From a virus, in IMG/VR virus record IMGVR_UViG_3300029267_000085, positions 1 through 29,363 of that record: a stretch of DNA of 29,363 bases; one strand, written 5' to 3'. Of this stretch, positions 7,617 through 29,088 are shown one piece after another (positions within the stretch are counted from its first letter, which is position 1; the number at the start of each line of letters is the position of its first letter). The notes below the pieces were generated by a model, which searched no databases, had not been told where the DNA came from, and saw only the letters and a program-made list of their open reading frames with translations. A program made the position numbers and the translations under genes.

Positions 7617-7625
7617 ATCAGTCTC

Positions 7626-8519: not shown

Positions 8520-8602
8520 AGCATCGCCCCCAGGAAAGGCGCACTTAGAACTAGCGCACCAGCCAGGACATAGACAGTGAAGTCGAATAGATCTTTTAAC
8601 AT
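8516..8602 (-). CDS. 28-residue membrane peptide upstream of the exonuclease
   Basis: The ATG at 8602 has an excellent AAAGGAGACC leader, the same as used elsewhere in this operon. The TGA at 8516-8518 overlaps the exonuclease ATG as ATGA. The peptide is one hydrophobic helix (YVLAGALVLSAPFLGAML). It may be a leader peptide that couples exonuclease translation, or a membrane peptide in its own right. The good ribosome site and perfect coupling are what support it. Confidence 0.5.
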   Translation of the reverse strand: MLKDLFDFTVYVLAGALVLSAPFLGAML

Positions 8603-8621
8603 TTTGGTCTCCTTTGAAAGC

Positions 8622-8639
8622 GGCCCGGCGGACCGGGCC
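8622..8639 (-). terminator. GC-rich hairpin, weak terminator or attenuator
   Basis: A perfect 7-bp inverted repeat GGCCCGG/CCGGGCC with a 4-base loop lies 7 bases beyond the stop of the 8647-9006 gene and just ahead of the exonuclease leader peptide. On the minus strand it is followed only by GCTTT, so it is not a strong intrinsic terminator. It could partly attenuate transcription or protect an mRNA end. Confidence 0.5.
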
Positions 8640-8646
8640 TTCATCT

Positions 8647-9006
8647 TTATGCAGCGTCAACGTCTTTCGCCAAGTAGAACGACATCGCGTCATTCTTGAT
8701 CAGCTTCAACATATCCAGGGCAGCAGCCTGCTGGGCAGCGATCGCCTTCGCAGTCGCCCTGCCTGGGTTTCTCATTACGGTCTTGAAGTAGTCCCCGTAC
8801 ACCGTGAACGTGATGCCGTATTCAGTCGGATAAACGACCTGGGCAATAGTGATGATGTCCTTGTTGGACTTCATGGTGGTGATGATAAGCACCTTGTCAT
8901 CATCGGGAACGTTGTCGAACAGCTTGAAGTTGTTGACGGCGCTGAGTTTGCCGTACAGATCACGCTTGGTGGTGACGGCGGTAGAGTTGAGATTCTGAAT
9001 TTTCAT
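8647..9006 (-). CDS. Early protein of unknown function
   Basis: The 119-residue soluble protein begins MKIQNLNSTAVTTKRDLYGK, with an alternating-strand first half and an alanine-rich helix at about 84-105. I recognise no family. It is the first gene behind the second minus-strand promoter (9057-9085) and has a GGGAGACC leader before its ATG. A hairpin follows its stop, so it could be expressed more strongly than the genes downstream. Confidence 0.65.
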   Translation of the reverse strand: MKIQNLNSTAVTTKRDLYGKLSAVNNFKLFDNVPDDDKVLIITTMKSNKDIITIAQVVYPTEYGITFTVYGDYFKTVMRNPGRATAKAIAAQQAAALDMLKLIKNDAMSFYLAKDVDAA

Positions 9007-12252: not shown

Positions 12253-12628
12253 GCAGGAAGGATTCGCCCAGGACTACATCCTGACCGGGTCCGCTTCCGA
12301 GGCGTATCGCCGGAATTACAACGCAGAATCCATGAAAATCGACACGATTCACAGGGCTGCGCATGACCTCATGGTCAACTCCAAGGTCGCTACAAGGATT
12401 CAAGAATTACAGCAAAAGATCGAACGCAAGTACGAAGTAACCGCTGAAAGCATCGCGAAAGAAGCAGACGAAGATCGCGCTCTAGCCAGGGAATTGGGCC
12501 AGCCATCAGCTGCAGTCGCAGCGCTCAACCTCAAGGCCAGACTGTTCGGCCTGGACAAGCAGGTGGTGAGCAATGATCCGGACAATCCGATGCCGACGCT
12601 GATCAACGTGGAGATCGTTCGCAAGTGA
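12203..12628 (+). CDS. terS: Terminase small subunit
   Basis: The 141-residue protein has a basic start, then [20 protein letters not shown] and [10 protein letters not shown], the N-terminal helix-turn-helix of terminase_2-type small subunits. A central helical oligomerisation region (about 50-80) and a C-terminal [14 protein letters not shown] segment follow. It should recognise the packaging site and recruit the large subunit, which follows with a GTGA overlap. The start overlaps the preceding small gene, with a weak ribosome site. Confidence 0.88.
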
Positions 12629-13896
12629 GCGCGCTAAAGATTCAGATCACCGAAGACTTCGCGCCATTCCTGGAGCCCAGGCGTTACAAAATCGCCTACG
12701 GTGGCCGTGGTTCAGGCAAATCCTGGGCAATCGCGCAGCTGCTGATCATGCTGGCGTACAAGCAGAAGACCAGGGTGCTCTGCGCTCGTGAGATCCAACG
12801 CTCGATCGGCGACTCAGTGATCCAGCTGCTATCCGACACCATCGATCGCATGGGCCTGACATCATTCTTCGACGTGCAGAAGACGCAGATCCTGGCGCGC
12901 AATGGGTCCAGGTTCATCTTCGAGGGGCTGCGGGCCAACATCACCAAGATCAAATCGATGGAAGGCATCGATCGGGTCTGGGTCGAGGAAGCCGAGAGCG
13001 TGACGTCAACGTCCTGGGACACGCTGATCCCGACGATCCGCAAAGCCGGGTCCGAGATCTGGGTGAGCTTCAACCCCAGGGACGAGCTCGACGCCACATA
13101 CCAGCGTTTCGTGCTCAATCCGCCGCCAGAATCCTACGTCGTCAAGGTCAACTACTCAGACAATCCCTGGTTTCCGGAAGAGCTGGAGAAGGAACGGCTG
13201 CACCTGCAGTCCCTGGACACCGACCTGTACAAACATATCTGGGAAGGCGAATGCCTGGTCAATCACCAGGGCGCGTACTACGCCAAGCAGATCGAGAATG
13301 CCAGGGCCGACGGCCGCATTGGCCGCATCCCGCTCGAATCGACGCTGCCGGTTCACACGTTCTGGGACCTGGGCATTGCAGATGCCACCGCAATCTGGCT
13401 GGTGCAGCAGGCTGGCCAGGAGCTGCGCGTCGTCGGGTACTACGAAAACCACAACGAAGGGCTGCAGCACTACGTCAACTGGCTGCACGACTTCCGTGAC
13501 CGGCACTCGATCACGTTCGGTGATCATTGGGCGCCGCATGACATCCAGGTGCGCGAGCTCACGACCGGCAAAACCCGAAAGGACCAGGCGCGAGCGATGG
13601 GCATCATCTTCCGCGTGACGCCGAACATCCCGCTGGCCGATGGCATCGAGGCGTCCAGGCGCATCATCCCGCGCTGCTGGTTCGACCAGGAACGCTGCGC
13701 CGATGGTCTGCGCGCGCTGTCGTACTACCGCACCGAGTACGACGAGGAAAAGCGCGTGTTCAAAGACCGGCCGCTGCATGACTGGAGCTCGCATGGCGCT
13801 GACGCATTCCGCTATTTCGCCGTTGCCTGGCGTGACAAGCGAGACGAAAGCCTCAAGAAACCGCTACGCATGCAGCAAGATTGGGCAGTGTTCTAG
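12625..13896 (+). CDS. terL: Terminase large subunit (PBSX/terminase_3 type)
   Basis: The 423-residue packaging motor begins with GTG overlapping the TerS stop. It has Walker A GGRGSGKS (26-33), Walker B-like VWVEEAE with the catalytic Glu at 121 or 122, a coupling-type VSFNPRDE (147-154), and the RNase-H-like nuclease start FWDLGIAD (D248, D253) with a later HGADAFRYF. It should translocate DNA into the prohead and cut the concatemer. The length is normal for the family. All six AGG arginine codons follow an NCC codon, part of a genome-scale CCWGG bias. Confidence 0.95.
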
Positions 13897-14363
13897 TGGC
13901 CTGGCTGAAACGCAAGCCACCAGAATCCCTGCTGGATCATTGGGACCTGGTGCCGATCGACTGGTTTATCGTGTTCGTGCATGGCGACATGCCCTGGCGT
14001 TTGGCCAAGCTACTCAAGCCTGGCTACCGTCATTGCTACGCGCTGCGTTGGGATGGCTTCAACTGGATTGGCTTCTATCCGCACCTGGGTTACACCGAGA
14101 TCGAGATCTTGCCGCATCAAACGCTAAATGTTTTTGATGTTGTCGCCGGGGAATATAGTGCTATTATCCACGCCAATGCCTGGCAGAAGGTGGGGAAAAT
14201 ACGCCAGCCCTGGCCGACTTTCTTCACCTGCGTCGAGCAGATAAAAGCGTTGCTGGGGATCAAGGCGTCGTTCGTCTTCACGCCCTGGCAACTGTTCAAA
14301 CGCCTAAGAGGAAAGCATCATGGGTGGAGTATTCTCAAAGCCGAAGCCGCCGCAAAAGTCTGA
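13896..14363 (+). CDS. Possible permuted papain-fold (NlpC/P60-like) protein between terminase and portal
   Basis: The GTG at 13896 shares a base with the terminase stop (TAGTG) and gives 155 residues. PGYRHCYALRWDGFNWI puts His46 at the start of a strand, and FFTCVEQIKALLG puts Cys112 at the start of a helix, followed by VFTPWQLFKRL. His before Cys is the order of circularly permuted NlpC/P60 and LRAT/YiiX-like enzymes, and the spacing fits. If active it would cleave an amide or ester in peptidoglycan or lipid. No endolysin is otherwise visible in the window. The catalytic assignment is inference. Confidence 0.55.
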   Translation: MAWLKRKPPESLLDHWDLVPIDWFIVFVHGDMPWRLAKLLKPGYRHCYALRWDGFNWIGFYPHLGYTEIEILPHQTLNVFDVVAGEYSAIIHANAWQKVGKIRQPWPTFFTCVEQIKALLGIKASFVFTPWQLFKRLRGKHHGWSILKAEAAAKV

Positions 14364-14520
14364 GGCTCAGGTCCGCGCCGAAGAAGCACAGGTTCAAGAA
14401 TTGGACCGTCTGACCAAGAAAGAAGACGCAATGAAAGCCGCAGCATCACGCAAGCGTCGTGGTCGCGCGTCATTGATCTCTGGCGAAGAAACTGGTGTAC
14501 GTTCTGGCACCTTGGGCTAA
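14320..14520 (+). CDS. Small basic phage protein directly ahead of the portal
   Basis: The 66-residue protein begins MGGVFSKPKPP, continues with a Glu/Gln/Lys helix (about 12-45) and ends in RRGRASLISGEETG and SGTLG. This shape is common just upstream of podovirus portals and is usually called a virion-associated or hypothetical protein. The ribosome site AGAGGAA lies inside the preceding gene, which it overlaps by 44 bases. Confidence 0.7.
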   Translation: MGGVFSKPKPPQKSEAQVRAEEAQVQELDRLTKKEDAMKAAASRKRRGRASLISGEETGVRSGTLG

Positions 14521-14523
14521 ACC

Positions 14524-16080
14524 ATGAAGTACAAAATCCCGGACGAGCTGGGTAACGTTGATGAGCTGATTCGCCGGTTCGACGTTGCGAAGCAAAAGAA
14601 AGATCCCTGGATCACGCACCTCCGGGAATGTTACGAGTATGCCCTGCCGCAGCGTGAGATCTTCAACCTGTATTCACCAGGTCAGAAGAAGAACATCGAC
14701 ATCTTCGATTCGACTGCGGTTATCGGTGCTCAGAAGTTTGCCAGCCGACTGCAGGCAACCCTGGTTCCGCCCTGGCGCAACTTCTCGATCCTGACACCAG
14801 GCTCTGAGATCCCTGAGAAAGAGCGCGACGGCATCCAGAAAGAGCTCGATAAGGTCAACGACGTCCTGTTCGACCACATTAACCACTCGAATTTCGCGAC
14901 CCAGGCGCACGAAGCGTTCCTGGATCTGTCGGTTTCGACTGGTGTGCTGACGCTGGAAGAATCAGACAGCGACGAATCGCTGCTCGACTTCAATGCAGCG
15001 CCGCTGGCCGAGGTATATCCAGAAGAAGGTCCGCGCGGCACGATCGAAACCGTCTGGCGTGAGCATTCAGTGCCGGCGCGTCACGTCGATCGTCTCTGGC
15101 CAGGCTCTGAAATGTCAGCGATGACGAAGAAGAAAGCGGTCGAGAGCCCCGATTCCAAGATCACGCTGCTCGAAGGCACCGTTTATGCGCCGAAGTCTGG
15201 CGTGTATTACCAGTGCGTCATTGAGCGCGACGCAAAACACGTCGTTTTCACCCAGACTTACGAGGTTTCGCCCTGGATTGTCTTCCGTGAAATGGTTGTG
15301 CCAGGCGAAGTGCTCGGTCGCGGCCGCATCATGCAGGTGCTGCCGGACATCAAGACCTGCAACAAGGTCGTCGAGTTCGTATTGCGCAACGCTGCCCTGG
15401 CTATCGGTGGCGTGTACACCGCCCAGGACGATGGCGTGATCAACCCATACACCTTGCAGATCGCACCTGGCGTCGTGATCCCGGTCGGGTCCAACGACAG
15501 CAGCAATCCGACGCTGCGCGCCCTGGATCGTGCTGGTGATTTCAACGTGAGCGAGCTGATCCTGACTGATCTGCGCGATCGCATCAACAAAGTGCTGTTC
15601 TCTGAGCCGTTCGGTGACATGAGCCAGCCGGTCAAGAGCGCGACTGAAATGTCGCTGCGTGGCCAAGAGCTGGTGATGGACGCCGGTTCAGCGTTTGCTC
15701 GACTGCAGACTGAGTTCATCGAGAAAGTGGTCAAGCGCTCGATCGATATTCTCAAGCGCAACGGCAAGGTGCCGGACATCCGCGTCGATGGCAAGGAAGT
15801 CACGATCAAGCACACCTCACCGTTGGCGCGCGCTCAAGATCAATCAGATCTCCTGGCGGTACAGCAGTTCATTCAGATGGGCGCTGCGTTTGGTCCGGAA
15901 ATGTTTGGCCTGGGCGCCAAGGTCGAGGACATGGTCGCCTACATTGGCAAAAAGCTGGGCATCAAGTCCGAGCTTTTGCGTACTCAAGACGAGCGCAAGC
16001 AACTCCAAGAGCAGGCAGCACAGGCTGCAGCAGCTCAACAGCAACAAGTGCAAATGGCGCAGCAACAACAGGAACAGTAA
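14524..16080 (+). CDS. Portal (head-to-tail connector), T7 gp8-like
   Basis: The 518-residue protein has the typical opening (ELIRRFDVAKQKKDPWITHLRECYEYALP, shown here only to mark residues 14-42). It then has FDSTAVIGAQKFASRL (about 62-77), a LVPPWRNFSIL motif, and an extended alpha/beta body. A long helix near SEPFGDMSQPVKSATEMSLR (about 358-377) and a Gln/Ala-rich coiled tail complete it. This matches the podovirus head-to-tail connecting protein family. It forms the dodecameric DNA gateway and binds the terminase during packaging and the tail tubular protein afterwards. The Gln-rich end is low complexity. Confidence 0.93.
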   Translation: MKYKIPDELGNVDELIRRFDVAKQKKDPWITHLRECYEYALPQREIFNLYSPGQKKNIDIFDSTAVIGAQKFASRLQATLVPPWRNFSILTPGSEIPEKERDGIQKELDKVNDVLFDHINHSNFATQAHEAFLDLSVSTGVLTLEESDSDESLLDFNAAPLAEVYPEEGPRGTIETVWREHSVPARHVDRLWPGSEMSAMTKKKAVESPDSKITLLEGTVYAPKSGVYYQCVIERDAKHVVFTQTYEVSPWIVFREMVVPGEVLGRGRIMQVLPDIKTCNKVVEFVLRNAALAIGGVYTAQDDGVINPYTLQIAPGVVIPVGSNDSSNPTLRALDRAGDFNVSELILTDLRDRINKVLFSEPFGDMSQPVKSATEMSLRGQELVMDAGSAFARLQTEFIEKVVKRSIDILKRNGKVPDIRVDGKEVTIKHTSPLARAQDQSDLLAVQQFIQMGAAFGPEMFGLGAKVEDMVAYIGKKLGIKSELLRTQDERKQLQEQAAQAAAAQQQQVQMAQQQQEQ

Positions 16081-16356
16081 ATGGCAGACGGTTGGAATGG
16101 TCTGGACCTTGAAGGCGAACACCTCAAGACACTCCAGGCCGAAAACGAAGCCAAGGCCCGCGAAATAGCAAGCCGATTTCACGAATGCTTCCGAAGCGAG
16201 GCGGGACAGTACGTTCTGCAGCGGTTGCGGGAAGTGACCCTGGACAAGCCGGTCCTTAACGGCAATTCAACCCAATTCAGCGCTGGCATCCGGGAAGGAC
16301 AGAACAACATCGTCCGTCAGATCCTGGAACAAATTGCCATGGCTGAAAAAATCTAA
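16081..16356 (+). CDS. Small virion-region protein, Bbp19-like
   Basis: The 91-residue protein starts directly after the portal stop. It contains FHECFRSEAGQYVLQRLRE and AGIREGQNNIVRQILEQI. I recognise this pattern (F-x-x-x-F-x-x-x-x-G-x-x-V-L then R-E-G-x-x-x-I-V) from a family typified by Bbp19 of a Bordetella phage. Its role in head assembly is unknown. Confidence 0.65.
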   Translation: MADGWNGLDLEGEHLKTLQAENEAKAREIASRFHECFRSEAGQYVLQRLREVTLDKPVLNGNSTQFSAGIREGQNNIVRQILEQIAMAEKI

Positions 16357-16367
16357 GAGAGGATGAC

Positions 16368-17120
16368 ATGAGCGAAGCAGCAGAGAGCTTGATTGACGAC
16401 ACCCCAACATCAGAAGTTTCTGATACTGGCGAATCGGTAACAAATGAATCCGAAGCACCAGCTGGGCCGTCCTGGTTCCTGGCAGAAAACATGCCTGGCG
16501 ATGGCGACCGTCCGGAATGGTTCAAGGATAAATACAAGTCGGTGGCTGACCAAGCCAAGGCCTACGCAGATCTCGAAAAGCGGTTTGGTGGTTTCACTGG
16601 CGCACCGGAAAGCTACGAGTTGACCCTGCCCGAAGGCGTCGAAGGCCAGTTCGACATGGAAGATCCGCGCCTGGCAGCGTTCCAGGAAGCAGCACGCGAA
16701 TCGAATATGTCCCAGGAAACATTCACCAAGTTCCTGCACCAGTACATTGAAGGCGAAGTCGCGGGCGAAACGATCAATGTCGAAGCTGAGCTCAAGGCGC
16801 TCGGCCCGAATGCTCAGTCACGCCTGGCCAGCCTCCGCGATTGGGGCAAAGCAAACCTGGATGATGCACAGTTCCAGGCAATGCGCGTCCTGGCGAGCAC
16901 TGCCGAAGGCGTCGGCGTACTCGAAGCGATGATTTCCAAGACCCGCGAGGCCAAAATGCCGACCGGCAATGAGGTCGTGAAGACCGGACCGAGCGAACAA
17001 GAGCTGCAAGAAATGGTTGCGGACCCGCGTTATCAGTCTTCGGCGGCATACCGGAAAGAAGTCGAGCGCAAATTTGAGGAATTTTATGGCAAACAACCGT
17101 ACCAAAATGTGGTTCAATAG
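16368..17120 (+). CDS. Scaffolding / capsid assembly protein
   Basis: The 250-residue acidic protein has a disordered Ser/Thr/Glu N-terminus, then PESYELTLPEGVEGQFDMED (about 83-102). A helical middle with MSQETFTKFLHQYIEGEVAG and a basic C-terminal helix (AAYRKEVERKFEEFYGK) follow. The domain order matches T7 gp9-like scaffolds, which line the prohead and bind the capsid protein through the basic end. It stands between portal and capsid as usual. A terminator follows 66 bases later. Confidence 0.85.
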   Translation: MSEAAESLIDDTPTSEVSDTGESVTNESEAPAGPSWFLAENMPGDGDRPEWFKDKYKSVADQAKAYADLEKRFGGFTGAPESYELTLPEGVEGQFDMEDPRLAAFQEAARESNMSQETFTKFLHQYIEGEVAGETINVEAELKALGPNAQSRLASLRDWGKANLDDAQFQAMRVLASTAEGVGVLEAMISKTREAKMPTGNEVVKTGPSEQELQEMVADPRYQSSAAYRKEVERKFEEFYGKQPYQNVVQ

Positions 17121-17186
17121 CGCTGATCACATCCATGGTGGTCCTATACCGGTCTAATTGGTCTCCTCCAGCAGCCGGTCTTCGCT

Positions 17187-17211
17187 CCCCCGCTTCGGCG
17201 GGGGTTTTTTT
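17187..17211 (+). terminator. Strong intrinsic terminator after the scaffold gene
   Basis: A perfect 7-bp stem CCCCCGC/GCGGGGG closes a TTCG tetraloop (17194-17197) and is followed by seven T residues. It separates the packaging/scaffold transcript from the capsid unit. Confidence 0.9.
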
Positions 17212-17216
17212 ATTCC

Positions 17217-17230
17217 GTTGAACAAACGTT
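17217..17230. repeat. Half copy of the replication-gene palindrome at the capsid promoter
   Basis: These 14 bases, GTTGAACAAACGTT, are identical to 10770-10783. The second arm diverges because it becomes the TTGACA box of the capsid promoter. Confidence 0.5.
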
Positions 17231-17256
17231 GACAGAGCGTTGCCTGGTGGTAATAT
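17229..17256 (+). promoter_or_regulatory. Capsid-gene promoter with extended -10
   Basis: TTGACA (17229-17234), a 16-base spacer and TAATAT (17251-17256), preceded by TG one base upstream, form a strong sigma-70-type promoter with extended -10. It lies directly behind the terminator and leaves an untranslated leader of about 115 bases. Confidence 0.75.
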
Positions 17257-17263
17257 CCAGGCA
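17241..17263. promoter_or_regulatory. Symmetric operator-like repeat around the capsid -10 box
   Basis: TGCCTGG (17241-17247) and its exact reverse complement CCAGGCA (17257-17263) flank the nine bases that contain the extended -10. A dimeric regulator binding here would block or remodel the promoter. Confidence 0.5.
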
Positions 17264-17377
17264 ATCCAGCCTCCTGGACACCTTCCGCATGGAAGCCCAA
17301 TACAAGGCGGGGAAGTCGGCCCGAAAGTCGGATACCCGAAAAGAACCTTAATTGGAACCTTAACTAGGAGGACTGAT

Positions 17378-18205
17378 ATGTCCATTTCACTTTCTGCAGC
17401 TGCGCAGCAGCTATTTGATTCGGAAGTGAAGCACGCCTTCCAGACTGCTGGCTCGCTTCGCAACACCGTAACTATCCGCAATGGCGTCAATGCTGACGTT
17501 TATAAGTTCCGTAAGATGGGTAAGGGCCTTGCAAACCAGAAGGCATCCCAGGCTGACGTAACTCCGATGAACGTCGCTCACTCGCTGATCTCTTGCACGC
17601 TCCAAAACTGGAACGCGCCGGAATACAGCGACATTTTCGACCAGGCAGAAGTCAACTTCGACGAGCGTCGTGAGCTGGCTACCACCATCGCAGGCGCCCT
17701 GGGCCGTCGTCTTGATCAGCTGATCATCGACGCACTGGCAGCAGAAGCCTCTCCGGCTGGTACCATTGCACACGGCTCTGCAGGTCTGACCCTGACCAAG
17801 CTGATCCAGGCTTCAAAGTACCTGAACGACAAGGGCGTACCGTCCACTGGTCGTCACTTTGCAGTATCTGCAGCCGGTCTCGAAGATCTGCTCGGCGACA
17901 CCACCATCACTAGCGTTGATTACAACAACATCAAGGCTCTGATGATGGGTGACATCGATACCTTCATGGGCTTCAAGTTCCATGTTGTTGAAACTCGCAG
18001 CGAAGGTGGCTTGCCGCTGGTATCTACCACTCGCGAAGGTTTCGCATGGCACGAAACTGCTGTTGGCCTGGCCATCGGCATGGACGTGAAGACCGAAGTC
18101 AACTACGTTCCGCAGAAGACTTCTTGGCTCTGCAACGGCATGATGAAGGCTGGCGCTGTTTCCCGTGATGGTGACGGCATCGTTTCCGTTTCCTGGTCTG
18201 AATAA
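17378..18205 (+). CDS. Major capsid protein
   Basis: The ATG at 17378 follows AGGAGG (17366-17371) by 6 bases; a longer open frame crosses the promoter and is rejected. The 275-residue protein has a helical N-terminus, an early strand-rich arm (RNTVTIRNGVNADVYKFRKM), and a spine-helix region around FDERRELATTIAGALGRRLD. The later domain contains HFAVSAAGLEDLLGDTT and GDIDTFMGFKFHVVE, a layout consistent with an HK97-fold podovirus coat of the phage_capsid type. Its own promoter and flanking terminators fit the need for high copy number. Confidence 0.88.
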   Translation: MSISLSAAAQQLFDSEVKHAFQTAGSLRNTVTIRNGVNADVYKFRKMGKGLANQKASQADVTPMNVAHSLISCTLQNWNAPEYSDIFDQAEVNFDERRELATTIAGALGRRLDQLIIDALAAEASPAGTIAHGSAGLTLTKLIQASKYLNDKGVPSTGRHFAVSAAGLEDLLGDTTITSVDYNNIKALMMGDIDTFMGFKFHVVETRSEGGLPLVSTTREGFAWHETAVGLAIGMDVKTEVNYVPQKTSWLCNGMMKAGAVSRDGDGIVSVSWSE

Positions 18206-18546: not shown

Positions 18547-19098
18547 ATGGCTACTGATATTTCAATGTGCTCGAATGCGCTGCTGTTGATCGGCCATTCG
18601 ACGATCTCTAGTTTTACTGACCCTGGTGCAGGGCCGGAAGTAGCGTCAAATCTGTACGAAACGACCTACGAAAACATGCTGACTATGCACCGCTGGCGCT
18701 TTGCGACCGGTAAGGCAAGCCTATCTCGCCTGACCGCGACCCCGCTCAACGAATGGGACTACGCATTCACGCTGCCGGCAAATTACCTGATGACGATCCG
18801 CGTTTATCCGGATGCCGATTACGAGCTGTACGAAAACAAGCTCTACTCGAATCAGCAAGAAGTCGATATTGACTACATTTTCAAGCCTGATGAATCACGT
18901 CTCCCGGCGTATTTCGTCAAGCTGATGGAGTTTCACCTGGCGTCGCAGTTTGCGATCCCGGTCACTGACAATACTGCGAAGGCCGAAGCCTACCGCGTCA
19001 TGTACGAAAACCAGCTGCGCAAGGCAAAATTCATCGATTCGCAGTCTCGTCCGAGCGATGCAATCGTAGATTCACCGTTCCTGGAAGCGAGGGCATAA
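18547..19098 (+). CDS. Tail tubular protein A-like (gatekeeper/adaptor)
   Basis: The 183-residue protein starts ATDISMCSNALLLIGHSTIS, with NLYETTYENMLTMHRWRFA (about 36-54), LNEWDYAFTLPANYL and FVKLMEFHLASQFA. These are the hallmarks of the T7 gp11-like family that forms the ring below the portal. The helical bundle is the expected fold. A GAGGA site lies 10 bases ahead of the start. It begins the tail transcript after the terminator; no separate promoter is clear, so read-through or an unseen promoter must drive it. Confidence 0.85.
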   Translation: MATDISMCSNALLLIGHSTISSFTDPGAGPEVASNLYETTYENMLTMHRWRFATGKASLSRLTATPLNEWDYAFTLPANYLMTIRVYPDADYELYENKLYSNQQEVDIDYIFKPDESRLPAYFVKLMEFHLASQFAIPVTDNTAKAEAYRVMYENQLRKAKFIDSQSRPSDAIVDSPFLEARA

Positions 19099-19099
19099 C

Positions 19100-20779
19100 A
19101 TGCCGCGCACGCTGAACCTGCAGACCAACTTCAACAGCGGGATCTTGGACCCGCGTCTGCAAGCACGCACCGACATCAAGCACTATTACCAGGGCGCAGC
19201 AACTGCGACCAACATGGTCACGACCCCGCAAGGCGGGATGAAGCGTCGCCCAGGCATGATGTTTGTGGATGATTTGCCGGGTGAAGCGCGCCTGGCTGCG
19301 TTTGCGTTCAACGTCGAACAGACCTATCTGATCGTTTTCACCAACAACAAGATCTCGATTTACAAAGATGACGTCAAACAAGCCGACGTTGTGACTACCT
19401 ACACGACCAGCGAGCTGTTTGAGCTGCAATGGACGCAGTCCGCAGACACCATGATTATCGTCCATGAAGATCATGCGCCGGCAAAGTTGGTCCGTGGTGG
19501 CTCTCACACGTCCTGGACGCTGTCGAATATCTCGCTGACTAACATCCCCACCTATGACTTCGGAAGCGGCGCAGAAGCCGTCTGGAGCGTATCTAGAGGC
19601 TGGCCAAAAAGCGTGACATTCCATGAGGGCCGCATGTGGTTTGGCGGATCTCGGTCCAGACCGCAGACTTTGTGGGGCTCCAAGACCAACGATTTCTACA
19701 ATTTCGACATTGGCACCGGTCTGGATGATGAAGCCATCGACGTCACGATGGACACTGATCAGGTCAACGCCGTCACTGCGCTGTTCGCCGGTCGTCACCT
19801 GCAGGTAATGACTACAGGCGGCGAGTTTTACATGCCGGATTCGCCAATTACGCCGGAAAAAAGCGCGGTCAAACGTCAGACTTTGTTCGGATCGAAGCCG
19901 ATTCCGCCGAAATCCATCGATGGCGCGACGTTTTTCGTGGACCGCACCGGTAAGGCAGTGCGCGAATATATCTACACCTACACCGAAGAAGCCTATACGT
20001 CAGGCACCGTGTCGCTTCTGGCGTCGCATATTCTGAATGCGCCGGTCGATATGGACGTGCTGCGTGGCACGCCGGACGATGATTCAAATTATCTGTACCT
20101 GGTGAACGGTGACGGCACGCTCGCAGTGTTTAACACGCTGCGCTCCCAGGAAGTCGGGGGCTGGACGCTATGGCAAACCAACGGCACAATCGAATCGGTC
20201 GCGGTTGTCGTTGATGAAGTATATTTTGTCGTCAAGCGCACGATAGACGGCACTGATTACCGATTCATTGAAGAACTGAACAAACTGCACTACACCGATT
20301 GCTCGGTGCTGCAGACTTACGGCACCGCGACCGCCACCATTTCTAACCTGGATCACCTTGATGGCGAAGAATGTCGCGTCAAGGCGGATGGCGCAATCAT
20401 GCCGAATGCGACGCCTTCGAGCGGAAGCATTACCTTGAGCCGTACTGCCAGCGAAGTCGAAGTCGGTCTTGATTTCGACACTGAAATCACAACGATGCCG
20501 CTGAATGTGGACTTCCAGGACGGTCCGATCCTGACGCGCAAGAAACGCCTGGTCCGCGTGGTGCTCGATTTGTACGAATCCTTGGGTGTTTTTGTGAACG
20601 GCCAGCGCATTCCTGACCGCCAATTCGGCGCGAGCATTCTGGATACCCAGCCGCAGCCGTACACTGGCATCGTTGAGATATACCTGAATGGCTGGGATCG
20701 TCTGGCACAGGTCACAATTTCACAACAAGATCCATTGCCGATGATGGTTATCGGCCTAGCAATCGAAGTCGAGGCATAA
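19100..20779 (+). CDS. Tail tubular protein B-like / stabilisation protein
   Basis: The 559-residue protein begins MPRTLNLQTNFNSGILDPRL, followed by GAATATNMVTTPQGGMKRRPG (near residues 32-52). This opening is characteristic of podovirus tail-nozzle and stabilisation proteins. Beta-propeller-like repeats follow, with F-N-V-E-Q-T-Y-L-I-V-F (about 69-79), W-x-Q-x-A-D-T-M-I-I-V-H-like and D-x-I-A-V-Y-type strands. A V-E-I-Y-L-N-G-W-like strand and a short end close it. It forms the tail nozzle below the adaptor ring. Confidence 0.85.
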   Translation: MPRTLNLQTNFNSGILDPRLQARTDIKHYYQGAATATNMVTTPQGGMKRRPGMMFVDDLPGEARLAAFAFNVEQTYLIVFTNNKISIYKDDVKQADVVTTYTTSELFELQWTQSADTMIIVHEDHAPAKLVRGGSHTSWTLSNISLTNIPTYDFGSGAEAVWSVSRGWPKSVTFHEGRMWFGGSRSRPQTLWGSKTNDFYNFDIGTGLDDEAIDVTMDTDQVNAVTALFAGRHLQVMTTGGEFYMPDSPITPEKSAVKRQTLFGSKPIPPKSIDGATFFVDRTGKAVREYIYTYTEEAYTSGTVSLLASHILNAPVDMDVLRGTPDDDSNYLYLVNGDGTLAVFNTLRSQEVGGWTLWQTNGTIESVAVVVDEVYFVVKRTIDGTDYRFIEELNKLHYTDCSVLQTYGTATATISNLDHLDGEECRVKADGAIMPNATPSSGSITLSRTASEVEVGLDFDTEITTMPLNVDFQDGPILTRKKRLVRVVLDLYESLGVFVNGQRIPDRQFGASILDTQPQPYTGIVEIYLNGWDRLAQVTISQQDPLPMMVIGLAIEVEA

Positions 20780-20780
20780 G

Positions 20781-21263
20781 ATGGGCGCATTTGTACCAGC
20801 ATTAGCAGCAGCAGCTCCCGCAGCAGGAGCAACAGCAGCAGCAGCAGCTCCAACTTTTCTTGGAATGACTGCTGCAGGATGGGCCGCCGCAGGAACAGCC
20901 ATGACTGTTTTGACATCAGTCCGAGCCGGCCAGGCAACGCAGGTCCAGATGGACATCGCTGCAGACCAGGAGAAGCAAGCTGCGATCTCTCGCGAAGTCG
21001 CGCGCAAGCGTCGCTTGGTTTCCTCCCTGGCAACCCAGAACGCAATGCGTGGCGCCCAGGGCGTGCAGCTGACTGGATCACCGGCATCGATGATGCTATC
21101 CGACATCGCTGCAGCCGAGTACGATACGACAATCGCTGCAGGCACAACGGCATCGCGCATTTCTGCGCTGCAGACCGAAGGCAAGTACGCAATGCAAGCT
21201 GGCGTGGCCAGCGCCGGCAGCTCTCTCCTGGACTTTGGCACGAGGATGGCAGAACGTGGCTGA
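20781..21263 (+). CDS. Internal virion (ejection) protein with Ala-rich hydrophobic start
   Basis: The 160-residue protein has an Ala/Pro/Gly/Thr-rich, hydrophobic N-terminus (1-47) encoded largely by GCA repeats. A helical region with ARKRRLVSSLATQNAMRGAQ (about 73-92), GVQLTGSPASMMLSDIAAAE and a Gly/Ala tail follow. The R-x-L-x-x-x-x-x-Q-x-A-x-x-x-x-G-V-x-x-x-G-S-P pattern is common in small podovirus ejection proteins analogous to T7 gp14, which inserts in the outer membrane. The next gene starts inside its last codons. Confidence 0.7.
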   Translation: MGAFVPALAAAAPAAGATAAAAAPTFLGMTAAGWAAAGTAMTVLTSVRAGQATQVQMDIAADQEKQAAISREVARKRRLVSSLATQNAMRGAQGVQLTGSPASMMLSDIAAAEYDTTIAAGTTASRISALQTEGKYAMQAGVASAGSSLLDFGTRMAERG

Positions 21264-23384: not shown

Positions 23385-26300
23385 ATGATGAACTTCGACC
23401 GCATGGGCAAACGCGACCTGCGCGACGAGTCTATCCGCAACCCAGCGACTGACGAACAAGACACCCCGGCCGGATTTTTCGAGTACACCAAGGCTGCGTT
23501 GAACGCGACCTTCTCGGAAAACCTGCCTGGCGCAATCGACGAAACCAGGGAAGACTTTGTCGCCCAGGAAATTCAGCGCATTTATGATCTGACGCAAGAT
23601 CGTGAGATCTTGAATGACACCGACTTTGCGCTCAAAGGCATTCACAGCACCGCGCTGGTTGAGGGCTATCAGACAGAAAAAATGACGCAGCGCATTAAGC
23701 AGCTGCAGGAACAATACCCGGACCAGGGTTTTCTCACCTGGGACGAGCTCAATCAACAGAAGATCATTCCGCATTTTGCCAAGATCCGTGAGGAACTTGC
23801 GATCGTTTCAGCAAATGCTGGACCTTTTGATCGTCTCCTGGGCGACTTGGTTGCCAGCACTGTAGAACTCGGCGGATCAGAATTCGGTCCGTTGGCTTTT
23901 CTAGGGCCACAGGGTCGCGTAGCTGGATCAGTCAAAGAAGCATTGAGCATGCTCCCAGGCTTGTTTGCCAAGGAAGCAGCTGTTGCAACTGCTGTCGAAA
24001 TCCCGATCCAGGCTCGCAAAATGTACGAGAAGCCGAAGATCGAGAGCCCATACGGTCTAAAAGACGCAGTCTATAACACCCTGATGGCTGCAGGCGGCGC
24101 AGGGATCATTCGCACTGGCGGATCACTGAGCTTCGACCTGGTTTATTTACGCAAGCTGGCAGCGCAAAAGCGCGCGACTGGCAAGCCGCAAGACACCGCA
24201 GAAGCCGAAGTCCTGGAAACCTATGCCGACACAATGGACCAGGCAAATGCTGTTCGCCCAGGCGAGCCAGCACCCGAAGCCAAAGTAAGCCAGGAACAGC
24301 ACGTCGAAGTGCTAGAACGCGCAACCAGGGCGCTGGATGAAGAAGGCCGGGTCCTTACGCAAGAAGAAGTCAATGAGGTGATCCCGGTCGAGCCATCACC
24401 GCTCTCGACCTTGGAAACGTTCAATCCCCAAGACATCCTAGTCGATGCCAAGACGTTCCAGTTTAAGGCCGGCGGTGACGTTGCTGGCGTCACTGAGCGC
24501 CTAAAAGGTGTGCAGAAATGGGACCCAGAACTGGCCGGCATGGTCATGGTCTGGGAAAACAACGCAGGCCAGCGCTTCATTGTCGATGGCCACCAGCGTC
24601 TGGCTTTGGCCAAGCGTGCCATTGCCGGCGGTCAGCCGATCGATGAAGTCACCCTGAACGGTTTTTTGCTGCGTGAAGCGGATGGCGTAACAGCTGGCGA
24701 CGCACGTCAGCGCGCCGCGATGAAGAATATCGCCGAAGATACCGGCACCGCGATCGACATCGCCAAGGTGCTGCGCGAAATCGGTGGCGAAGAAGGCCTG
24801 GCAAAAATGCCGCAGATCCCGCTGACATCGGCCAAGGTCCGTGACGCGCGTGGTCTGACAAACCTGGAAGACGAATCTTTTATGATGGTGGTCAACGACC
24901 TGGTCGATTCCAGGTTTGCGGCCGTCGTCGGTGATCTCATCACTGATCCAGCGCAGCAGCGCGCAATCATGCGTGGTTTGATGCAAAACCCGCCTGGTAA
25001 TCTTAACCAGGCGCGGATCATGGTCGGCGCTATGCGTGACGCAGGATTTGAGAAGCGCGAGACGATGGACCTTTTCGGCGGCCAGGAACTGACTGAGACC
25101 CTGTTCAAGGAGCGCGCCCAGGTCATTGATCACATGATGCGCCAGGTCAAGCAGGACAAGCAGGTCTTTTCTGGCCTGGAACGCAATGCGGACCGGATCG
25201 TCGGCGCAGGTAACATCCTCGATCGCGAGGCCAACATTCAGAGGTTCACCCAAGATGAAAGAACGCTCGCAGCGCTCACGTCCCTTGCTAACACTAAAGG
25301 GCCGATCTCAGACGCAATCAACGAAGCAGCCCGCAGAGTCAAAGCCGGCGAATCCATCACCAAAGCAAGCGCCGATATTCTCCCCGCCATTAGACAACAG
25401 GCAGCTGCAGAATATGCTCCTCGGCCTAGAGATGGCGGCCGCAGACCTGCAGAGCAAGAAGCAGCCGGAGTAATTGACGAAACTGCGCCGAACTTTGGCA
25501 TGCAAGAAGTGCCAAAGGTCCTGGATGCCAATGACAAGCTGTTGAAGCCAACCGACACAATCAAGACCAAAGCGCGCGAAAAGCAGCGCCAGAAATGGGT
25601 CAATGATGTTTTGAAGGAAGGCACGCCGGTTGTTGGCCGTAAGCCAGTCGCGTATGTCATGGGCGGCGGCGGCGCCAGCGGCAAAGGAACGGTTCTCAGA
25701 GAATTACAGAAAATGGGCGCGATCCCGGATAAGGGCGTCGTCCGCATCGATCCGGATAGCATTAAAGAGCTGATCCCTGAGTATAAAAAGATCATCGAAG
25801 CAGGCGACGGTCGCGCAGCCAGTGTGGTTCACGAAGAAAGCTCGATGCTGGCCAAGCAGGTCCAGGCACAAGCTGCAGAGCGCAAGATGGACATCATCCT
25901 GGACGTCACGCTAGGCAATGCCGAAAAAGGCGCAGCAAAACTTAAAGAGCTAGTGGATTCTGGTTATGAGGTGCAGCTGATCGGTGTTACCGTTGACGTT
26001 GCAGAAGCTGCCAGACGTGCTGTTTTGCGTGCGCAAGGCGAAGGGCGTTATGTCCCGATGCCTGAATTGGTCAAGGCTCACAAGGGTTTCAGCGAAGGCT
26101 GGGATGATTATGTGAAGCTGTCGGACAGAGCGACGCTATTTGATAACAATGGCGAAGCGCCGAGAGTAATCGCAGAAGGCGAGACAGGCAGGATAGACAT
26201 ATTATCCGAAGAAGAATATAATGCTTTTGTAAGGAAGGCCGTAATCAATGAAAAAGCCAACACCATCGCAGAACTCCGTGTCCCCGAAGGGGGGCGTCCC

Positions 26301-26654
26301 GGTCGGCCAGGGATTTCAGATCGACCCAGAGTCGTTCAAGAAGACACGCGAGGAATACGCCAAGAGCCAGAAGCTGCCGATACCGGTCGAATTTCCGGTG
26401 AAAGACTAGCCAGCGATCTTCCTGATCTCGGTGACGCCGAGCTCAAAAACCTCTACCAGGATGAACTTCTCGAAGCCCGCCGTCTTCTCGACGAGCTGGG
26501 CGACGTAGAAATACCTGGCGCAAGCCGCCTCGACGGCGAAACCGGTGACATCGTTACCGAAGCTCAATCCCTACGCCAAGCACTAGACGACCTCGATGTT
26601 GAAGATCGGATGATCGACGATATGTTTGGCTGCATCGGAGGCCGTAATGCCTAA
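23385..26654 (+). CDS. Giant internal virion protein with ParB-like fold and zeta-toxin-type kinase
   Basis: The 1089-residue protein lies in the ejection-protein row. Residues 1-330 are helical. Residues 347-470 look like a ParB/Srx-type fold (FNPQDILV; IVDGHQRLALAKRA with the D-G-H-Q-R motif at 401-405). Residues 730-955 carry all zeta-toxin kinase landmarks: Walker A GGGASGKGT (761-769), IDPDSIKELIPEY (788-800, catalytic Asp 791), HEESS (816-820), ILDVTLGN (838-845) and RRAVLRAQGEGRYVP (877-891). The tail is acidic. Zeta kinases phosphorylate UDP-GlcNAc precursors or other nucleotides. No antitoxin gene is visible. Ejection with the genome is inferred from position. An A/T-rich patch with rare codons covers about 26150-26260. 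Confidence 0.8.
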   Translation: MMNFDRMGKRDLRDESIRNPATDEQDTPAGFFEYTKAALNATFSENLPGAIDETREDFVAQEIQRIYDLTQDREILNDTDFALKGIHSTALVEGYQTEKMTQRIKQLQEQYPDQGFLTWDELNQQKIIPHFAKIREELAIVSANAGPFDRLLGDLVASTVELGGSEFGPLAFLGPQGRVAGSVKEALSMLPGLFAKEAAVATAVEIPIQARKMYEKPKIESPYGLKDAVYNTLMAAGGAGIIRTGGSLSFDLVYLRKLAAQKRATGKPQDTAEAEVLETYADTMDQANAVRPGEPAPEAKVSQEQHVEVLERATRALDEEGRVLTQEEVNEVIPVEPSPLSTLETFNPQDILVDAKTFQFKAGGDVAGVTERLKGVQKWDPELAGMVMVWENNAGQRFIVDGHQRLALAKRAIAGGQPIDEVTLNGFLLREADGVTAGDARQRAAMKNIAEDTGTAIDIAKVLREIGGEEGLAKMPQIPLTSAKVRDARGLTNLEDESFMMVVNDLVDSRFAAVVGDLITDPAQQRAIMRGLMQNPPGNLNQARIMVGAMRDAGFEKRETMDLFGGQELTETLFKERAQVIDHMMRQVKQDKQVFSGLERNADRIVGAGNILDREANIQRFTQDERTLAALTSLANTKGPISDAINEAARRVKAGESITKASADILPAIRQQAAAEYAPRPRDGGRRPAEQEAAGVIDETAPNFGMQEVPKVLDANDKLLKPTDTIKTKAREKQRQKWVNDVLKEGTPVVGRKPVAYVMGGGGASGKGTVLRELQKMGAIPDKGVVRIDPDSIKELIPEYKKIIEAGDGRAASVVHEESSMLAKQVQAQAAERKMDIILDVTLGNAEKGAAKLKELVDSGYEVQLIGVTVDVAEAARRAVLRAQGEGRYVPMPELVKAHKGFSEGWDDYVKLSDRATLFDNNGEAPRVIAEGETGRIDILSEEEYNAFVRKAVINEKANTIAELRVPEGGRPGRPGISDRPRVVQEDTRGIRQEPEAADTGRISGERLASDLPDLGDAELKNLYQDELLEARRLLDELGDVEIPGASRLDGETGDIVTEAQSLRQALDDLDVEDRMIDDMFGCIGGRNA
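26248..26409 (+). CDS. Possible nested 53-residue gene inside the zeta protein gene
   Basis: In another frame, ATG 26248 follows AAGGAAGG by 9 bases and opens 53 residues ending at TAG 26407-26409. The product looks like a compact basic/acidic peptide (QGFQIDPESFKKTREEYAKS, then QKLPIPVEFPVKD), while the main frame there is a Gly/Pro/Arg-rich linker. It could be a small regulator of the kinase domain that ends just upstream, or a chance frame. Confidence 0.3.
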   Translation: MKKPTPSQNSVSPKGGVPVGQGFQIDPESFKKTREEYAKSQKLPIPVEFPVKD

Positions 26655-29088
26655 TCTTGACCAATGTATCCGGACCGCAGTCGAGAATGGCGATCTGACA
26701 GAACAGCTCGGAATTGAGCTGCAGCATCGCGTCGATGGATTCACGCGAGCACTGACGATCAAGGGGCAGATGTCGCCCGATGCGGCGCGTCGCGCTGCGC
26801 AGCGGCAGGCCCTGGAATCACAAAAAGCCGAGATCGCGCTCAGAAAGCGCCAGGCCGGGCTGCAGGCAATCGCGCTACACAAGGCTATCCAGAACGCTCA
26901 ACGTCACCCAGAAGGCTTTGCAGCCGGCGTGATGTCGCTCCTGGTCAAGGACCTGGGTCGTAGAGCGCCCTACTCGAATATCGACAACCGCGCCAAAGCG
27001 ATCCTGGCTGAATTGCATGCCAGTTTTTCGGAAGCGATGAATCAATACCGCACGAAATTGGCAGGATTAACGCAAGACAAAGAAGGTCTGCGCAACATGG
27101 TGCGCGAGCTGTTTGGTACCGATACCGGCGATCAAATGGCCAAGATCTACTCGAAGACCTGGTCAGAAACGGCCGAAATGGCGCGCAAGATGTTTAACCG
27201 CGCGGGTGGCGCAATCCCGAAACGTGAAGATTGGGGCATGCCGCAGTTTCACGATCCGATGCGCGTAGCCAGAGTCAGCAAGGAAGAATGGACCAAGACG
27301 ATCACGCCGATGCTGGATCGCAATCGCATGCTGACGCCAGAAGGCATCCCGATGACCGAAATGGAATTCAGGCTGTTCCTGGATCATGCGTATGACACCA
27401 TCAGCAGCAATGGTCTGGTGGACCTTATGCCAGGTCGCATGGGTGGCACAAAACTGGCGAATCGTCGCCGTGATCACCGTGTCCTGGCATTCAAGGACGC
27501 TGATTCCTGGCTGGAATATCACGACAAGTTTGGTCACGCAGACATTTACACCACCATGACCGATCACTTGTCTGGCATGGCCCAAGACATCGCCAAGCTC
27601 GAAATCATGGGGCCAAACCCAGAAACCAGTTTCCGCTATTTGCGTGATATGGCCAGGAAAGAAGGCCTGGACAATATGGGCCTTGGCATGCTGGATTCGG
27701 TCTGGGGTACGGTTACTGGCAAGGTCAACACGACCGAATCGGTCCGCCTGGCAGACTTCATGCAGGCAGTGCGTCATTACTTGGTCAGCGCCAAATTGGG
27801 CGGCGCATTTCTCTCGTCGATCTCAGACTTTGGATTTACGCGCCAGACTGCTGCATTCAACGGCCTTTCTTCGACCAAGATCTTCAATTCGTATTTGTCG
27901 CTGATGAATCCAGCCAACGCTGCAGATCGTTTGATGGCGGTCAAAATGCAGCTGACTGCAGACGCCTGGACAACACGCGCTTTGGCAGCAAACCGCTACA
28001 CCGAAGTCACTGGCGCAGGATTTTCGGCCAAGGCCGCAGATTTCACGATGCGTGCGTCATTCCTATCGGCGCACACCGATGCCATGCGTAAGGCCTTCGG
28101 GATGGAATTCCAGGCAGCACTGGCGACGCAGATGGGCAAGTCCCTGGACAAGGTCCAGCCGGAGCTCCAGAAGGCGCTGCGTGAGTATGGGATTACTGAT
28201 GCGGAATGGGAGATCATCCGCCAGACACCTAAGCTCAAGCATCCAAAGCACAAGGATGTTGAGTATTTTTCGCCTGAAAACATGATGCAGCGGACCGATC
28301 TTCCGGAATCGCAACGTCGCGCGCTCAATTTGAAAATCCAGGAAATGATCCTGACCGAGACTGATTTTGCGGTCCCGACGCCAGACGCCAGGGTCCGCGC
28401 GATCACCAGTGCCGGCGCCAAGCGCGGATCGGTGATGGGCGAATTCTCCCGCAGCATTTTCCTGTTCAAGTCATTCCCGGTCACGATCGTTGCGACGCAC
28501 TTGTATCGTGGTGCGTTACAGAATGGCCTGGGCAGCAAGGCGAAATACTTGTCCAGCATTGCCGTATCGACGACAGTCCTGGGCGCGATTGCAATCCAGG
28601 CAAAGGAAATGTCGCGCGGCAAAGATCCTCGCGACATGACCGATCCGAAATTCTGGGCGGCAGCATTTATCCAGGGTGGCGGCGCCGGCATTTACGGCGA
28701 TTTCCTGTTCTCTGACGCAAACCGTTTCGGCGGCGGCGTAGTGCAGAGCTTCCTGGGTCCAGTGCCTGGTTTTGCCAATGATGTCGCACAGCTGACGCTC
28801 GGAAACATCCAGGAATTCTTGCAAGGAAAAGATACCAATATCGGGGCAGACTTGGTACGATTCGCTCGTGGCTACACCCCAGGTGGCTCGCTTTGGTACA
28901 CCAGACTTGCGTTTGAACGTGGAGTTTTGGACCAGTTACAGCTCATGGCCGATCCAAAGGCCAAGAGCAAACTTCGCCGCTACGAAAGTAAGCGTCGAAA
29001 GGATTATGGGCAGAAGTTTTGGTGGCGCCCTGGCGAAACTACGCCGCGCCGCGGCCCAAACATTGAAGCAGCAACCGGGGGTCGATAG
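26647..29088 (+). CDS. Large internal virion protein with C-terminal membrane-active region
   Basis: The ATG at 26647 has GGAGG 5 bases upstream and overlaps the previous stop; a longer TTG frame is rejected. The 813-residue protein is helical, with a basic N-terminal coil (about 35-85). Near residues 595-690 it has hydrophobic and glycine-rich stretches (FLFKSFPVTIVATHLYRGAL, VSTTVLGAIAIQ, AAFIQGGGAGIYGDFLF), and the end is strongly basic. This C-terminal pattern recurs in large podovirus ejection proteins and suits insertion into the host inner membrane during genome entry. No lysozyme domain is evident. Confidence 0.75.
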   Translation: MPNLDQCIRTAVENGDLTEQLGIELQHRVDGFTRALTIKGQMSPDAARRAAQRQALESQKAEIALRKRQAGLQAIALHKAIQNAQRHPEGFAAGVMSLLVKDLGRRAPYSNIDNRAKAILAELHASFSEAMNQYRTKLAGLTQDKEGLRNMVRELFGTDTGDQMAKIYSKTWSETAEMARKMFNRAGGAIPKREDWGMPQFHDPMRVARVSKEEWTKTITPMLDRNRMLTPEGIPMTEMEFRLFLDHAYDTISSNGLVDLMPGRMGGTKLANRRRDHRVLAFKDADSWLEYHDKFGHADIYTTMTDHLSGMAQDIAKLEIMGPNPETSFRYLRDMARKEGLDNMGLGMLDSVWGTVTGKVNTTESVRLADFMQAVRHYLVSAKLGGAFLSSISDFGFTRQTAAFNGLSSTKIFNSYLSLMNPANAADRLMAVKMQLTADAWTTRALAANRYTEVTGAGFSAKAADFTMRASFLSAHTDAMRKAFGMEFQAALATQMGKSLDKVQPELQKALREYGITDAEWEIIRQTPKLKHPKHKDVEYFSPENMMQRTDLPESQRRALNLKIQEMILTETDFAVPTPDARVRAITSAGAKRGSVMGEFSRSIFLFKSFPVTIVATHLYRGALQNGLGSKAKYLSSIAVSTTVLGAIAIQAKEMSRGKDPRDMTDPKFWAAAFIQGGGAGIYGDFLFSDANRFGGGVVQSFLGPVPGFANDVAQLTLGNIQEFLQGKDTNIGADLVRFARGYTPGGSLWYTRLAFERGVLDQLQLMADPKAKSKLRRYESKRRKDYGQKFWWRPGETTPRRGPNIEAATGGR

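What the first reader, a model, noticed from the sequence alone, without database searches (positions are those of the whole stretch)
23385..26654. Virion ejection protein carrying a complete zeta-toxin kinase and a ParB-like fold
In one unbroken 1089-residue frame, set between two ejection-type proteins, I see every landmark of a zeta kinase (Walker A, D-P-D, H-E-E, D-V-T, the paired arginines) plus a D-G-H-Q-R ParB/Srx-like motif. Zeta toxins are normally small toxins neutralised by an antitoxin. Here the kinase would be carried in the particle and injected with the DNA. It might stall cell-wall precursor synthesis, kill competitors, or modify nucleotides or DNA at entry. The kinase is not N-terminal and no antitoxin is near, so it could be masked in the virion.
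Basis: partly seen in the sequence, partly recalled or inferred. Interest (0 to 1): 0.8.

Follow-up and report, generated by a model that had tools for sequence, protein, structure and literature searches.

The report
Phage entry protein with swappable kinase
A large protein that this short-tailed phage probably injects with its DNA carries a real zeta-type kinase next to a ParB-like fold; in close relatives the kinase is cleanly swapped for an unrelated ATP-using enzyme (Tas1-like), so the gene looks like a carrier for interchangeable enzymes that hit host nucleotides at entry.

Summary
The 1089-aa ORF (23385-26654) has a bona fide Pfam Zeta_toxin domain (E=1.7e-38, aa 751-922) and a ParB-like region (Foldseek: Noc/ParB, E=2e-4), set between ejection-module genes. 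Catalytic residues K767, D791, K794, R882 and R888 are nearly invariant in 58 non-redundant phage homologues, under purifying selection. The injection idea fits gene context but is untested. The wall-synthesis idea is weakened: four of the five residues that bind UDP-GlcNAc in zeta are absent, and HxESS and R..H motifs are shared instead with AvrRxo1, an NAD 3'-kinase. This is a polyvalent protein, a class described in 2017 (zeta kinases included); halovirus HCTV-5 already carries an annotated zeta+ParB protein. New here: in related phages the N-terminal+ParB part and the C-terminal tail are constant, while the slot between them holds a zeta kinase (two subclasses), a Tas1-like (p)ppApp synthetase (E=2e-20) or nothing. 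One pair shares 96-99% DNA identity on both sides of completely different slots. No antitoxin or immunity gene is adjacent in any case. Best reading: a virion-delivered polymorphic effector whose slot carries ATP-using enzymes acting on nucleotides; substrate unknown.

The parts
23385..26654 (+). 1089-aa polyvalent protein: constant N-terminus + ParB-like region + swappable slot (zeta kinase here) + constant C-terminal tail
23385..24410 (+). aa 1-342: mostly helical N-terminal constant region, probably for packaging/ejection (inferred)
   Evidence: helical in the model; conserved in orthologues with different slots
24411..25424 (+). aa 343-680: ParB-like domain plus conserved helical extension (phrog_10691 region)
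   Evidence: phrog_10691 E=6e-56; Foldseek Noc/ParB E=2e-4; 34-57% identical in the more distant relatives of A3; dN=0 over aa 343-475 against two close relatives
24585..24599 (+). DGHQR motif of the ParB-like domain (aa 401-405), invariant in the ten sequences of A3
25635..26150 (+). Zeta_toxin (PF06414) kinase domain, aa 751-922; fills the swappable slot
25662..25691 (+). Walker A GGGGASGKGT (aa 760-769); K767 = zeta K46; G768 in place of zeta T47
25749..25757 (+). DPD (aa 789-791); D791 = catalytic base (zeta D67 / PezT D66), 58/58
   Evidence: PMC3062530
25830..25844 (+). HEESS (aa 816-820), shared by both phage subclasses and AvrRxo1, not by zeta/PezT
25902..25910 (+). DVT (aa 840-842); T842 = zeta T118; P-x-V in subclass 2
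26028..26048 (+). invariant arginines R882 (zeta R158) and R888
26424..26639 (+). aa 1014-1085: C-terminal constant tail, retained when the slot is exchanged
20781..21263 (+). 160-aa small Ala-rich protein in the place of a gp14-like ejection protein (by size and order)
   Evidence: order described in PMC8954989
21235..23382 (+). 715-aa upstream neighbour (phrog_9153), gp15-like by size and place
26626..29088 (+). 820-aa downstream neighbour (ATG probably at 26647), phrog_684 'virion structural protein'; homologue of phiV10 p20
18547..20779 (+). tail (phrog_394) and nozzle/tail (phrog_376, Phage_nozzle) genes upstream
12625..18205 (+). terminase large subunit, T7-type portal (Head-tail_con), head assembly gene and major capsid gene of the same virus

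Best explanation
A polyvalent, probably virion-packaged and injected, effector protein of a podovirus. The constant N-terminal helical region and C-terminal tail fit it into the ejection machinery (inferred); a ParB-like nucleotide/DNA-binding fold sits in the middle (fold shown, function inferred); and a slot near the C-terminus carries one of several interchangeable ATP-using enzymes that modify small nucleotides. In this phage the enzyme is a zeta-family kinase with an intact catalytic core that would phosphorylate a host nucleotide (NAD or another adenine nucleotide more likely than UDP-GlcNAc) soon after entry, to weaken defence or host metabolism. Shown: the domain, the conservation, the purifying selection, the slot exchange and the gene context. 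Inferred: packaging, injection, substrate and benefit.
For: Zeta_toxin E=1.7e-38; structure match to AvrRxo1, zeta and PezT; K767, D791, K794, R882, R888 almost invariant in 58 non-redundant domains; dN/dS 0.09 and 0.06 over the zeta region. ParB-like fold: Foldseek Noc E=2e-4. Ejection-module synteny without exception where testable, with a neighbour annotated as virion structural protein. Slot exchange: relatives 82-96% identical over the first 660-800 aa and similar again over the last 55-100 aa differ completely in between; L136/L134 share 97.8% DNA identity over 7.7 kb before and 98.7% over 4.2 kb after the slot. The alternative module is a Tas1-like (p)ppApp synthetase (E=2.4e-20; Foldseek E=2e-8, target TM 0.73). 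UDP-GlcNAc contacts absent, AvrRxo1-like motifs present. No adjacent antitoxin. Polyvalent proteins with zeta, ParB-like and RelA/SpoT domains predicted to be injected: PMC5512222.
Against: No virion proteomics for this phage or a close relative; no biochemical data for any member; the NAD suggestion rests on shared motifs and a fold match only, and Pfam still files the domain as zeta toxin; module C, the one in the 98%-identity pair, matches Tas1 only through its relationship to module B; no processing protease was seen by Pfam scan of this protein.
Confidence: 0.66

Rival explanations
1. The kinase phosphorylates UDP-GlcNAc (or UDP-MurNAc) as the zeta/PezT toxins do, and blocks peptidoglycan precursor synthesis at entry or before lysis.
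For: Pfam Zeta_toxin; the catalytic base and T118 equivalent are kept in this subclass; Iyer et al. proposed wall weakening for zeta domains in polyvalent proteins.
Against: E100, R120, T121 and T128 of zeta are not conserved in window or family; subclass 2 in the same slot has P-x-V in place of D-x-T, and the equivalent T-to-V change made PezT non-toxic. The exchange partner in the slot is a nucleotide pyrophosphokinase, not a wall enzyme.
Confidence: 0.15
2. The domain acts on nucleic-acid ends (polynucleotide-kinase-like): it phosphorylates DNA or RNA ends during genome entry or repair, with the ParB-like fold binding DNA.
For: The zeta fold belongs with T4 PNK-type kinases (PMC5491322); weak hits of sister proteins to phrog_505 polynucleotide kinase; ParB-like DNA-binding fold next to it.
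Against: Best matches are small-molecule kinases (zeta, AvrRxo1), not PNK; the domain is replaced by an alarmone synthetase in sister phages, which would not do that job.
Confidence: 0.1
3. The protein is not packaged; it is made late in the infected cell and acts there (superinfection exclusion, lysis timing, or competition between phages).
For: Late-gene position alone does not prove packaging; no virion data exist.
Against: Gene order matches the gp14-gp15-gp16 type ejection cluster (PMC8954989), the downstream homologue is annotated as virion structural protein, and related polyvalent and MuF proteins are placed in phage heads (PMC5512222, PMC12226406).
Confidence: 0.12
4. The zeta domain is a decayed leftover without activity.
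For: G768 replaces the usual Walker A Thr/Ser.
Against: GKG[T] is the form found in adenylate kinases (general knowledge), and GKG occurs in 47 of 55 covered phage homologues; catalytic residues are invariant and dN/dS is 0.06-0.09.
Confidence: 0.03

Closest known systems
Polyvalent proteins of phages (Iyer et al. 2017, PMC5512222)
   Same: Large multidomain protein in the late virion gene block; ParB-like, zeta-like and RelA/SpoT-like domains all listed there; predicted to be injected with the DNA.
   Different: No MPTase/zincin seen by Pfam; the ParB-like domain is not the DdrB family by profile; here the enzyme domain is exchanged within one orthologous podovirus gene.
Halovirus HCTV-5 gp114 (annotated 'zeta toxin and ParB nuclease domain protein')
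   Same: Zeta and ParB-like domains in one 1293-aa protein, a few genes downstream of a MuF-type gene.
   Different: Archaeal tailed virus; only the kinase part matches at sequence level (25% identity to a subclass-2 relative).
MuF polymorphic phage toxins, including Apk2 (PMC5576092, PMC12226406)
   Same: Head-associated phage protein with a constant carrier part and a variable enzyme; Apk2 carries a (p)ppApp synthetase.
   Different: No MuF domain found; slot is internal with a constant tail after it; no immunity gene behind it (89% of MuF toxins have a small ORF there).
Epsilon/zeta and PezAT toxin-antitoxin kinases
   Same: Fold, Walker A lysine, catalytic Asp, K70 and R158 equivalents.
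   Different: UDP-GlcNAc contacts missing; fused in a large phage protein; no antitoxin.
AvrRxo1 (NAD 3'-kinase, PMC5491322, PMC4938570)
   Same: Top fold match; shares R-x-K-L-H-like and H-x-E-S-S motifs; also lacks the UDP-GlcNAc contacts.
   Different: Bacterial type III effector with its own partner Arc1; lower profile score than zeta (29 against 56 bits).
Tas1 (T6SS (p)ppApp synthetase)
   Same: Relative of the alternative slot module in sister phages.
   Different: Not present in the window itself.

Membership tests
Zeta_toxin (PF06414) | Profile match above the curated cut-off | tested here: met
   132.5 bits against 22.3
Zeta_toxin (PF06414) | Catalytic K46, D67, K70, R158 | tested here: met
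   K767, D791, K794, R882 at 95-100% in 58 homologues; mapping
Zeta_toxin (PF06414) | Walker A Thr (T47) | tested here: not met
   G768; Ser in most of subclass 2
Zeta/PezT UDP-GlcNAc kinases | Substrate contacts E100, T118, R120, T121, T128 | tested here: not met
   only T118 (T842) kept; K824, G844, N845, K852
Zeta/PezT UDP-GlcNAc kinases | Adjacent antitoxin gene | tested here: not met
   gene abuts neighbours, gaps at most 11 nt
Polyvalent proteins | Large protein joining unrelated enzymatic/binding domains | tested here: met
   ParB-like fold + zeta kinase in 1089 aa
Polyvalent proteins | Located among virion/late genes | tested here: met
Polyvalent proteins | Packaged and injected | not testable with these tools
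   needs virion mass spectrometry and infection assays
Polyvalent proteins | MPTase processing domain (frequent, not obligatory) | tested here: not met
   no Pfam match
DdrB-like ParB (PF18763) | Profile match | tested here: not met
   no hit at E<=0.01; hhalign probability 0.1 against family members from related loci
ParB/Srx superfamily fold | Structural match to ParB/Noc N-terminal domain | tested here: met
   Foldseek Noc 7nfu E=2e-4, prob 1.0
ParB/Srx superfamily fold | NTP or DNA binding/cleavage activity | not testable with these tools
   needs biochemistry
MuF polymorphic toxins | N-terminal MuF domain | tested here: not met
   no MuF match in Pfam or PHROGs
MuF polymorphic toxins | Constant carrier with exchangeable enzyme | tested here: met
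MuF polymorphic toxins | Downstream immunity ORF | tested here: not met
AvrRxo1-type NAD kinase | NAD 3'-kinase activity | not testable with these tools
   only shared motifs and top fold match

The most novel reading that the evidence does not exclude
These podoviruses carry a polymorphic effector slot in an ejection protein, filled with interchangeable enzymes that move (pyro)phosphate from ATP onto nucleotide 3'-hydroxyls (zeta/AvrRxo1-like kinases or Tas1-like adenosine pyrophosphokinases), injected at entry to disable nucleotide-based (NAD or second-messenger) antiphage defence or host energy metabolism.
Probability: 0.3. Interest if true: 0.82.

Novelty: new variant of a known kind. Interest (0 to 1): 0.62.

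Why it matters
Zeta kinases and (p)ppApp synthetases are known as toxins that come with an antidote. Here phages appear to load one or the other, with no antidote gene beside it, into a protein that probably enters the cell with the DNA. The near-identical phage pairs that differ only in the slot are a natural experiment: they make it directly testable what the injected enzyme buys the phage. The substrate question (UDP-sugar, NAD or another nucleotide) also bears on how phages beat nucleotide-based immunity.

Tried and rejected
Chance or spurious ORF: rejected (Pfam E 1e-38, near-identical homologues, dN/dS below 0.1). DdrB-ParB membership: rejected by profile, though the fold is ParB-like. 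MuF fusion: no match. Dead kinase: rejected by conservation. PADLOC scan of this protein and its relatives: no hits. PDB sequence search with the ParB alignment: nothing significant; only the fold search showed it. Profile comparison of the zeta module with the alternative module: unrelated. Module C alone has no PDB hit; it joins the Tas1-like group only through module B. tRNA scan: none. Promoter/terminator scan: promoters no more than shuffles. No paper found that describes exchange of enzymes in podoviral ejection proteins, but literature searches were few and limited to open papers.

Full report
Observation. The ORF at 23385-26654 (+) is 1089 aa long and open throughout. The window is an IMG/VR virus record of 29,363 bases, possibly a fragment. 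Pfam finds one domain above cut-off in the ORF, Zeta_toxin, at aa 751-922 (E=1.7e-38). PHROGs matches the middle (aa 351-683) to phrog_10691 (E=6e-56) and the kinase part to 'minor head protein' phrog_16619. Two close relatives in IMG/VR are 98% and 94% identical over the full length. Between window and L003 dN/dS is 0.086 over the zeta region and 0 over the ParB region (dN = 0); against L002 it is 0.060 and 0.

Structure. AlphaFold2 with 42 family members gives pLDDT 92-97 over most of the kinase and about 80-93 over the ParB region; the N-terminus is mostly helical and of mixed confidence. Foldseek against the PDB returns AvrRxo1 (2e-7), zeta bound to its substrate (4e-7) and PezT, then Noc and ParB for the middle region (2e-4, prob 1.0). 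The ParB reading is thus supported by fold, not by sequence: the Pfam DdrB-ParB family does not match, and a profile comparison with DdrB-ParB members found at the same gene position in related phages gives probability 0.1.

Kinase residues. In 58 non-redundant phage domains (under 80% identity) the Walker lysine K767, D791, K794, H816, E818, S819, D840, R882 and R888 are 95-100% conserved and T842 is 93%. The loci were found with patterns covering Walker A and HEES, so those two motifs are partly ascertained; D791, K794, D840, T842, R882 and R888 are not. D791 lines up with zeta D67 / PezT D66, the catalytic base. Of the published UDP-GlcNAc contacts (E100, T118, R120, T121, T128), only T118 is present. 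This is the same pattern described for AvrRxo1, which does not use UDP-GlcNAc but phosphorylates NAD. The profile alignment also shows an R-x-K-L-H-like motif before the P-loop and H-x-E-S-S shared with AvrRxo1 but not with zeta or PezT. Profile scores still favour zeta (56 against 29 bits), so the substrate stays open.

Context. The gene lies after tail, nozzle, a 160-aa and a 715-aa gene and before an 820-aa gene of phrog_684, homologous to a phiV10 gene annotated as virion structural protein. Small, middle, large is the order described for podovirus ejection clusters (PMC8954989). Every related protein with the N-terminal+ParB architecture that has at least 900 bp of downstream sequence is followed by the 820-aa homologue, and the kinase-bearing ones abut their neighbours with gaps of at most 11 nt, leaving no room for an antitoxin.

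Polymorphic slot. Across relatives the N-terminal+ParB region and the C-terminal tail are constant while the part between them is exchanged. Of 66 slots long enough to cluster, 35 hold a zeta kinase, 21 a second module, 5 a third, and 5 others; nine more proteins had too little sequence left in the slot to cluster, as if empty. The zeta kinases fall into two subclasses: the window's (GKG..., D-x-T) and one with GKS... and P-x-V, still a Zeta_toxin by Pfam (E=5.6e-18). The second module is a Tas1-like (p)ppApp synthetase: E=2.4e-20 to Tas1 with the combined alignment, 3.9e-19 with module B alone, and Foldseek Tas1 2e-8, target TM 0.73, followed by small alarmone synthetases. The third is a divergent relative of the second (hhalign 99%) without a PDB hit of its own. 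Exchange is recent and clean: L134 (zeta) and L136 (module C) share 97.8% DNA identity over 7.7 kb and 95.9% over 1.2 kb before the slot, no match in the slot (L134 aa 731-1057), and 98.7% over 4.2 kb after it; L162/L164, L145/L148, L134/L137 and L012/L013 show the same at 74-90%. Proportions are not unbiased, since loci were fetched by ParB, zeta or neighbour patterns, but the ParB search was blind to the slot.

Reading. The protein is a polyvalent protein in the sense of Iyer et al. (PMC5512222), who already listed zeta-like kinases, ParB-like domains and RelA/SpoT domains and proposed injection; HCTV-5 already carries an annotated zeta+ParB protein. MuF toxins are the known example of phage head proteins with exchangeable enzymes, including a (p)ppApp synthetase. 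What I did not find described is an ejection-cluster protein of podoviruses with an internal slot, constant on both sides, that alternates a zeta kinase with a Tas1-like enzyme and has no immunity gene. That both enzymes spend ATP on nucleotides suggests a common target class; this is inference. Packaging, injection, substrate and benefit are all untested.

Scores. I rate the finding a new variant of a known kind, interest 0.62.

Noticed in passing
L134 vs L136; L162 vs L164; L145 vs L148; L012 vs L013: Phage pairs nearly identical except for a completely different enzyme module in this one gene.
   Followed up: yes
L012, L137, L014, L016, L153 and others (slot region): Tas1-like (p)ppApp synthetase module in the same slot of sister phages; some (L137, L153, L018, L182) seem to carry an extra ParB/Noc-like piece before it.
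   Followed up: partly
L067, L070, L072, L063, L060, L065, L090: Large phage proteins of the PSS2 'minor head protein' type with two tandem zeta kinase domains.
   Followed up: no
L005 (Ruegeria phage 45A6), L007 (P-SCSP1a), L040, L043, L047: Very large proteins (2,500 to more than 4,000 aa) carrying the same ParB-like region or a zeta domain.
   Followed up: no
L023, L024, L025, L026: In more distant phages the gene at the same position carries the Pfam DdrB-ParB domain; L026 also matches an endolysin family.
   Followed up: partly
L014:8538-8654 (aa 473-511): Partial ART-PolyVal (ADP-ribosyltransferase) match, E=2e-4, in an orthologue without the ParB region.
   Followed up: no
window 6963-8693 (-): RecT/Bet-like annealing protein and RecE-like exonuclease genes.
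   Followed up: no
H127-H150 (Pseudomonas phages H66, F116 and relatives): Part of the L012 slot stretch (residues 307-433 of the query) is 46-48% identical to large proteins of these phages, outside the Tas1-like domain.
   Followed up: no
(BFVD): Zeta-like kinases also occur in giant viruses of eukaryotes (Tupanvirus, Harvfovirus and others) by fold search.
   Followed up: no
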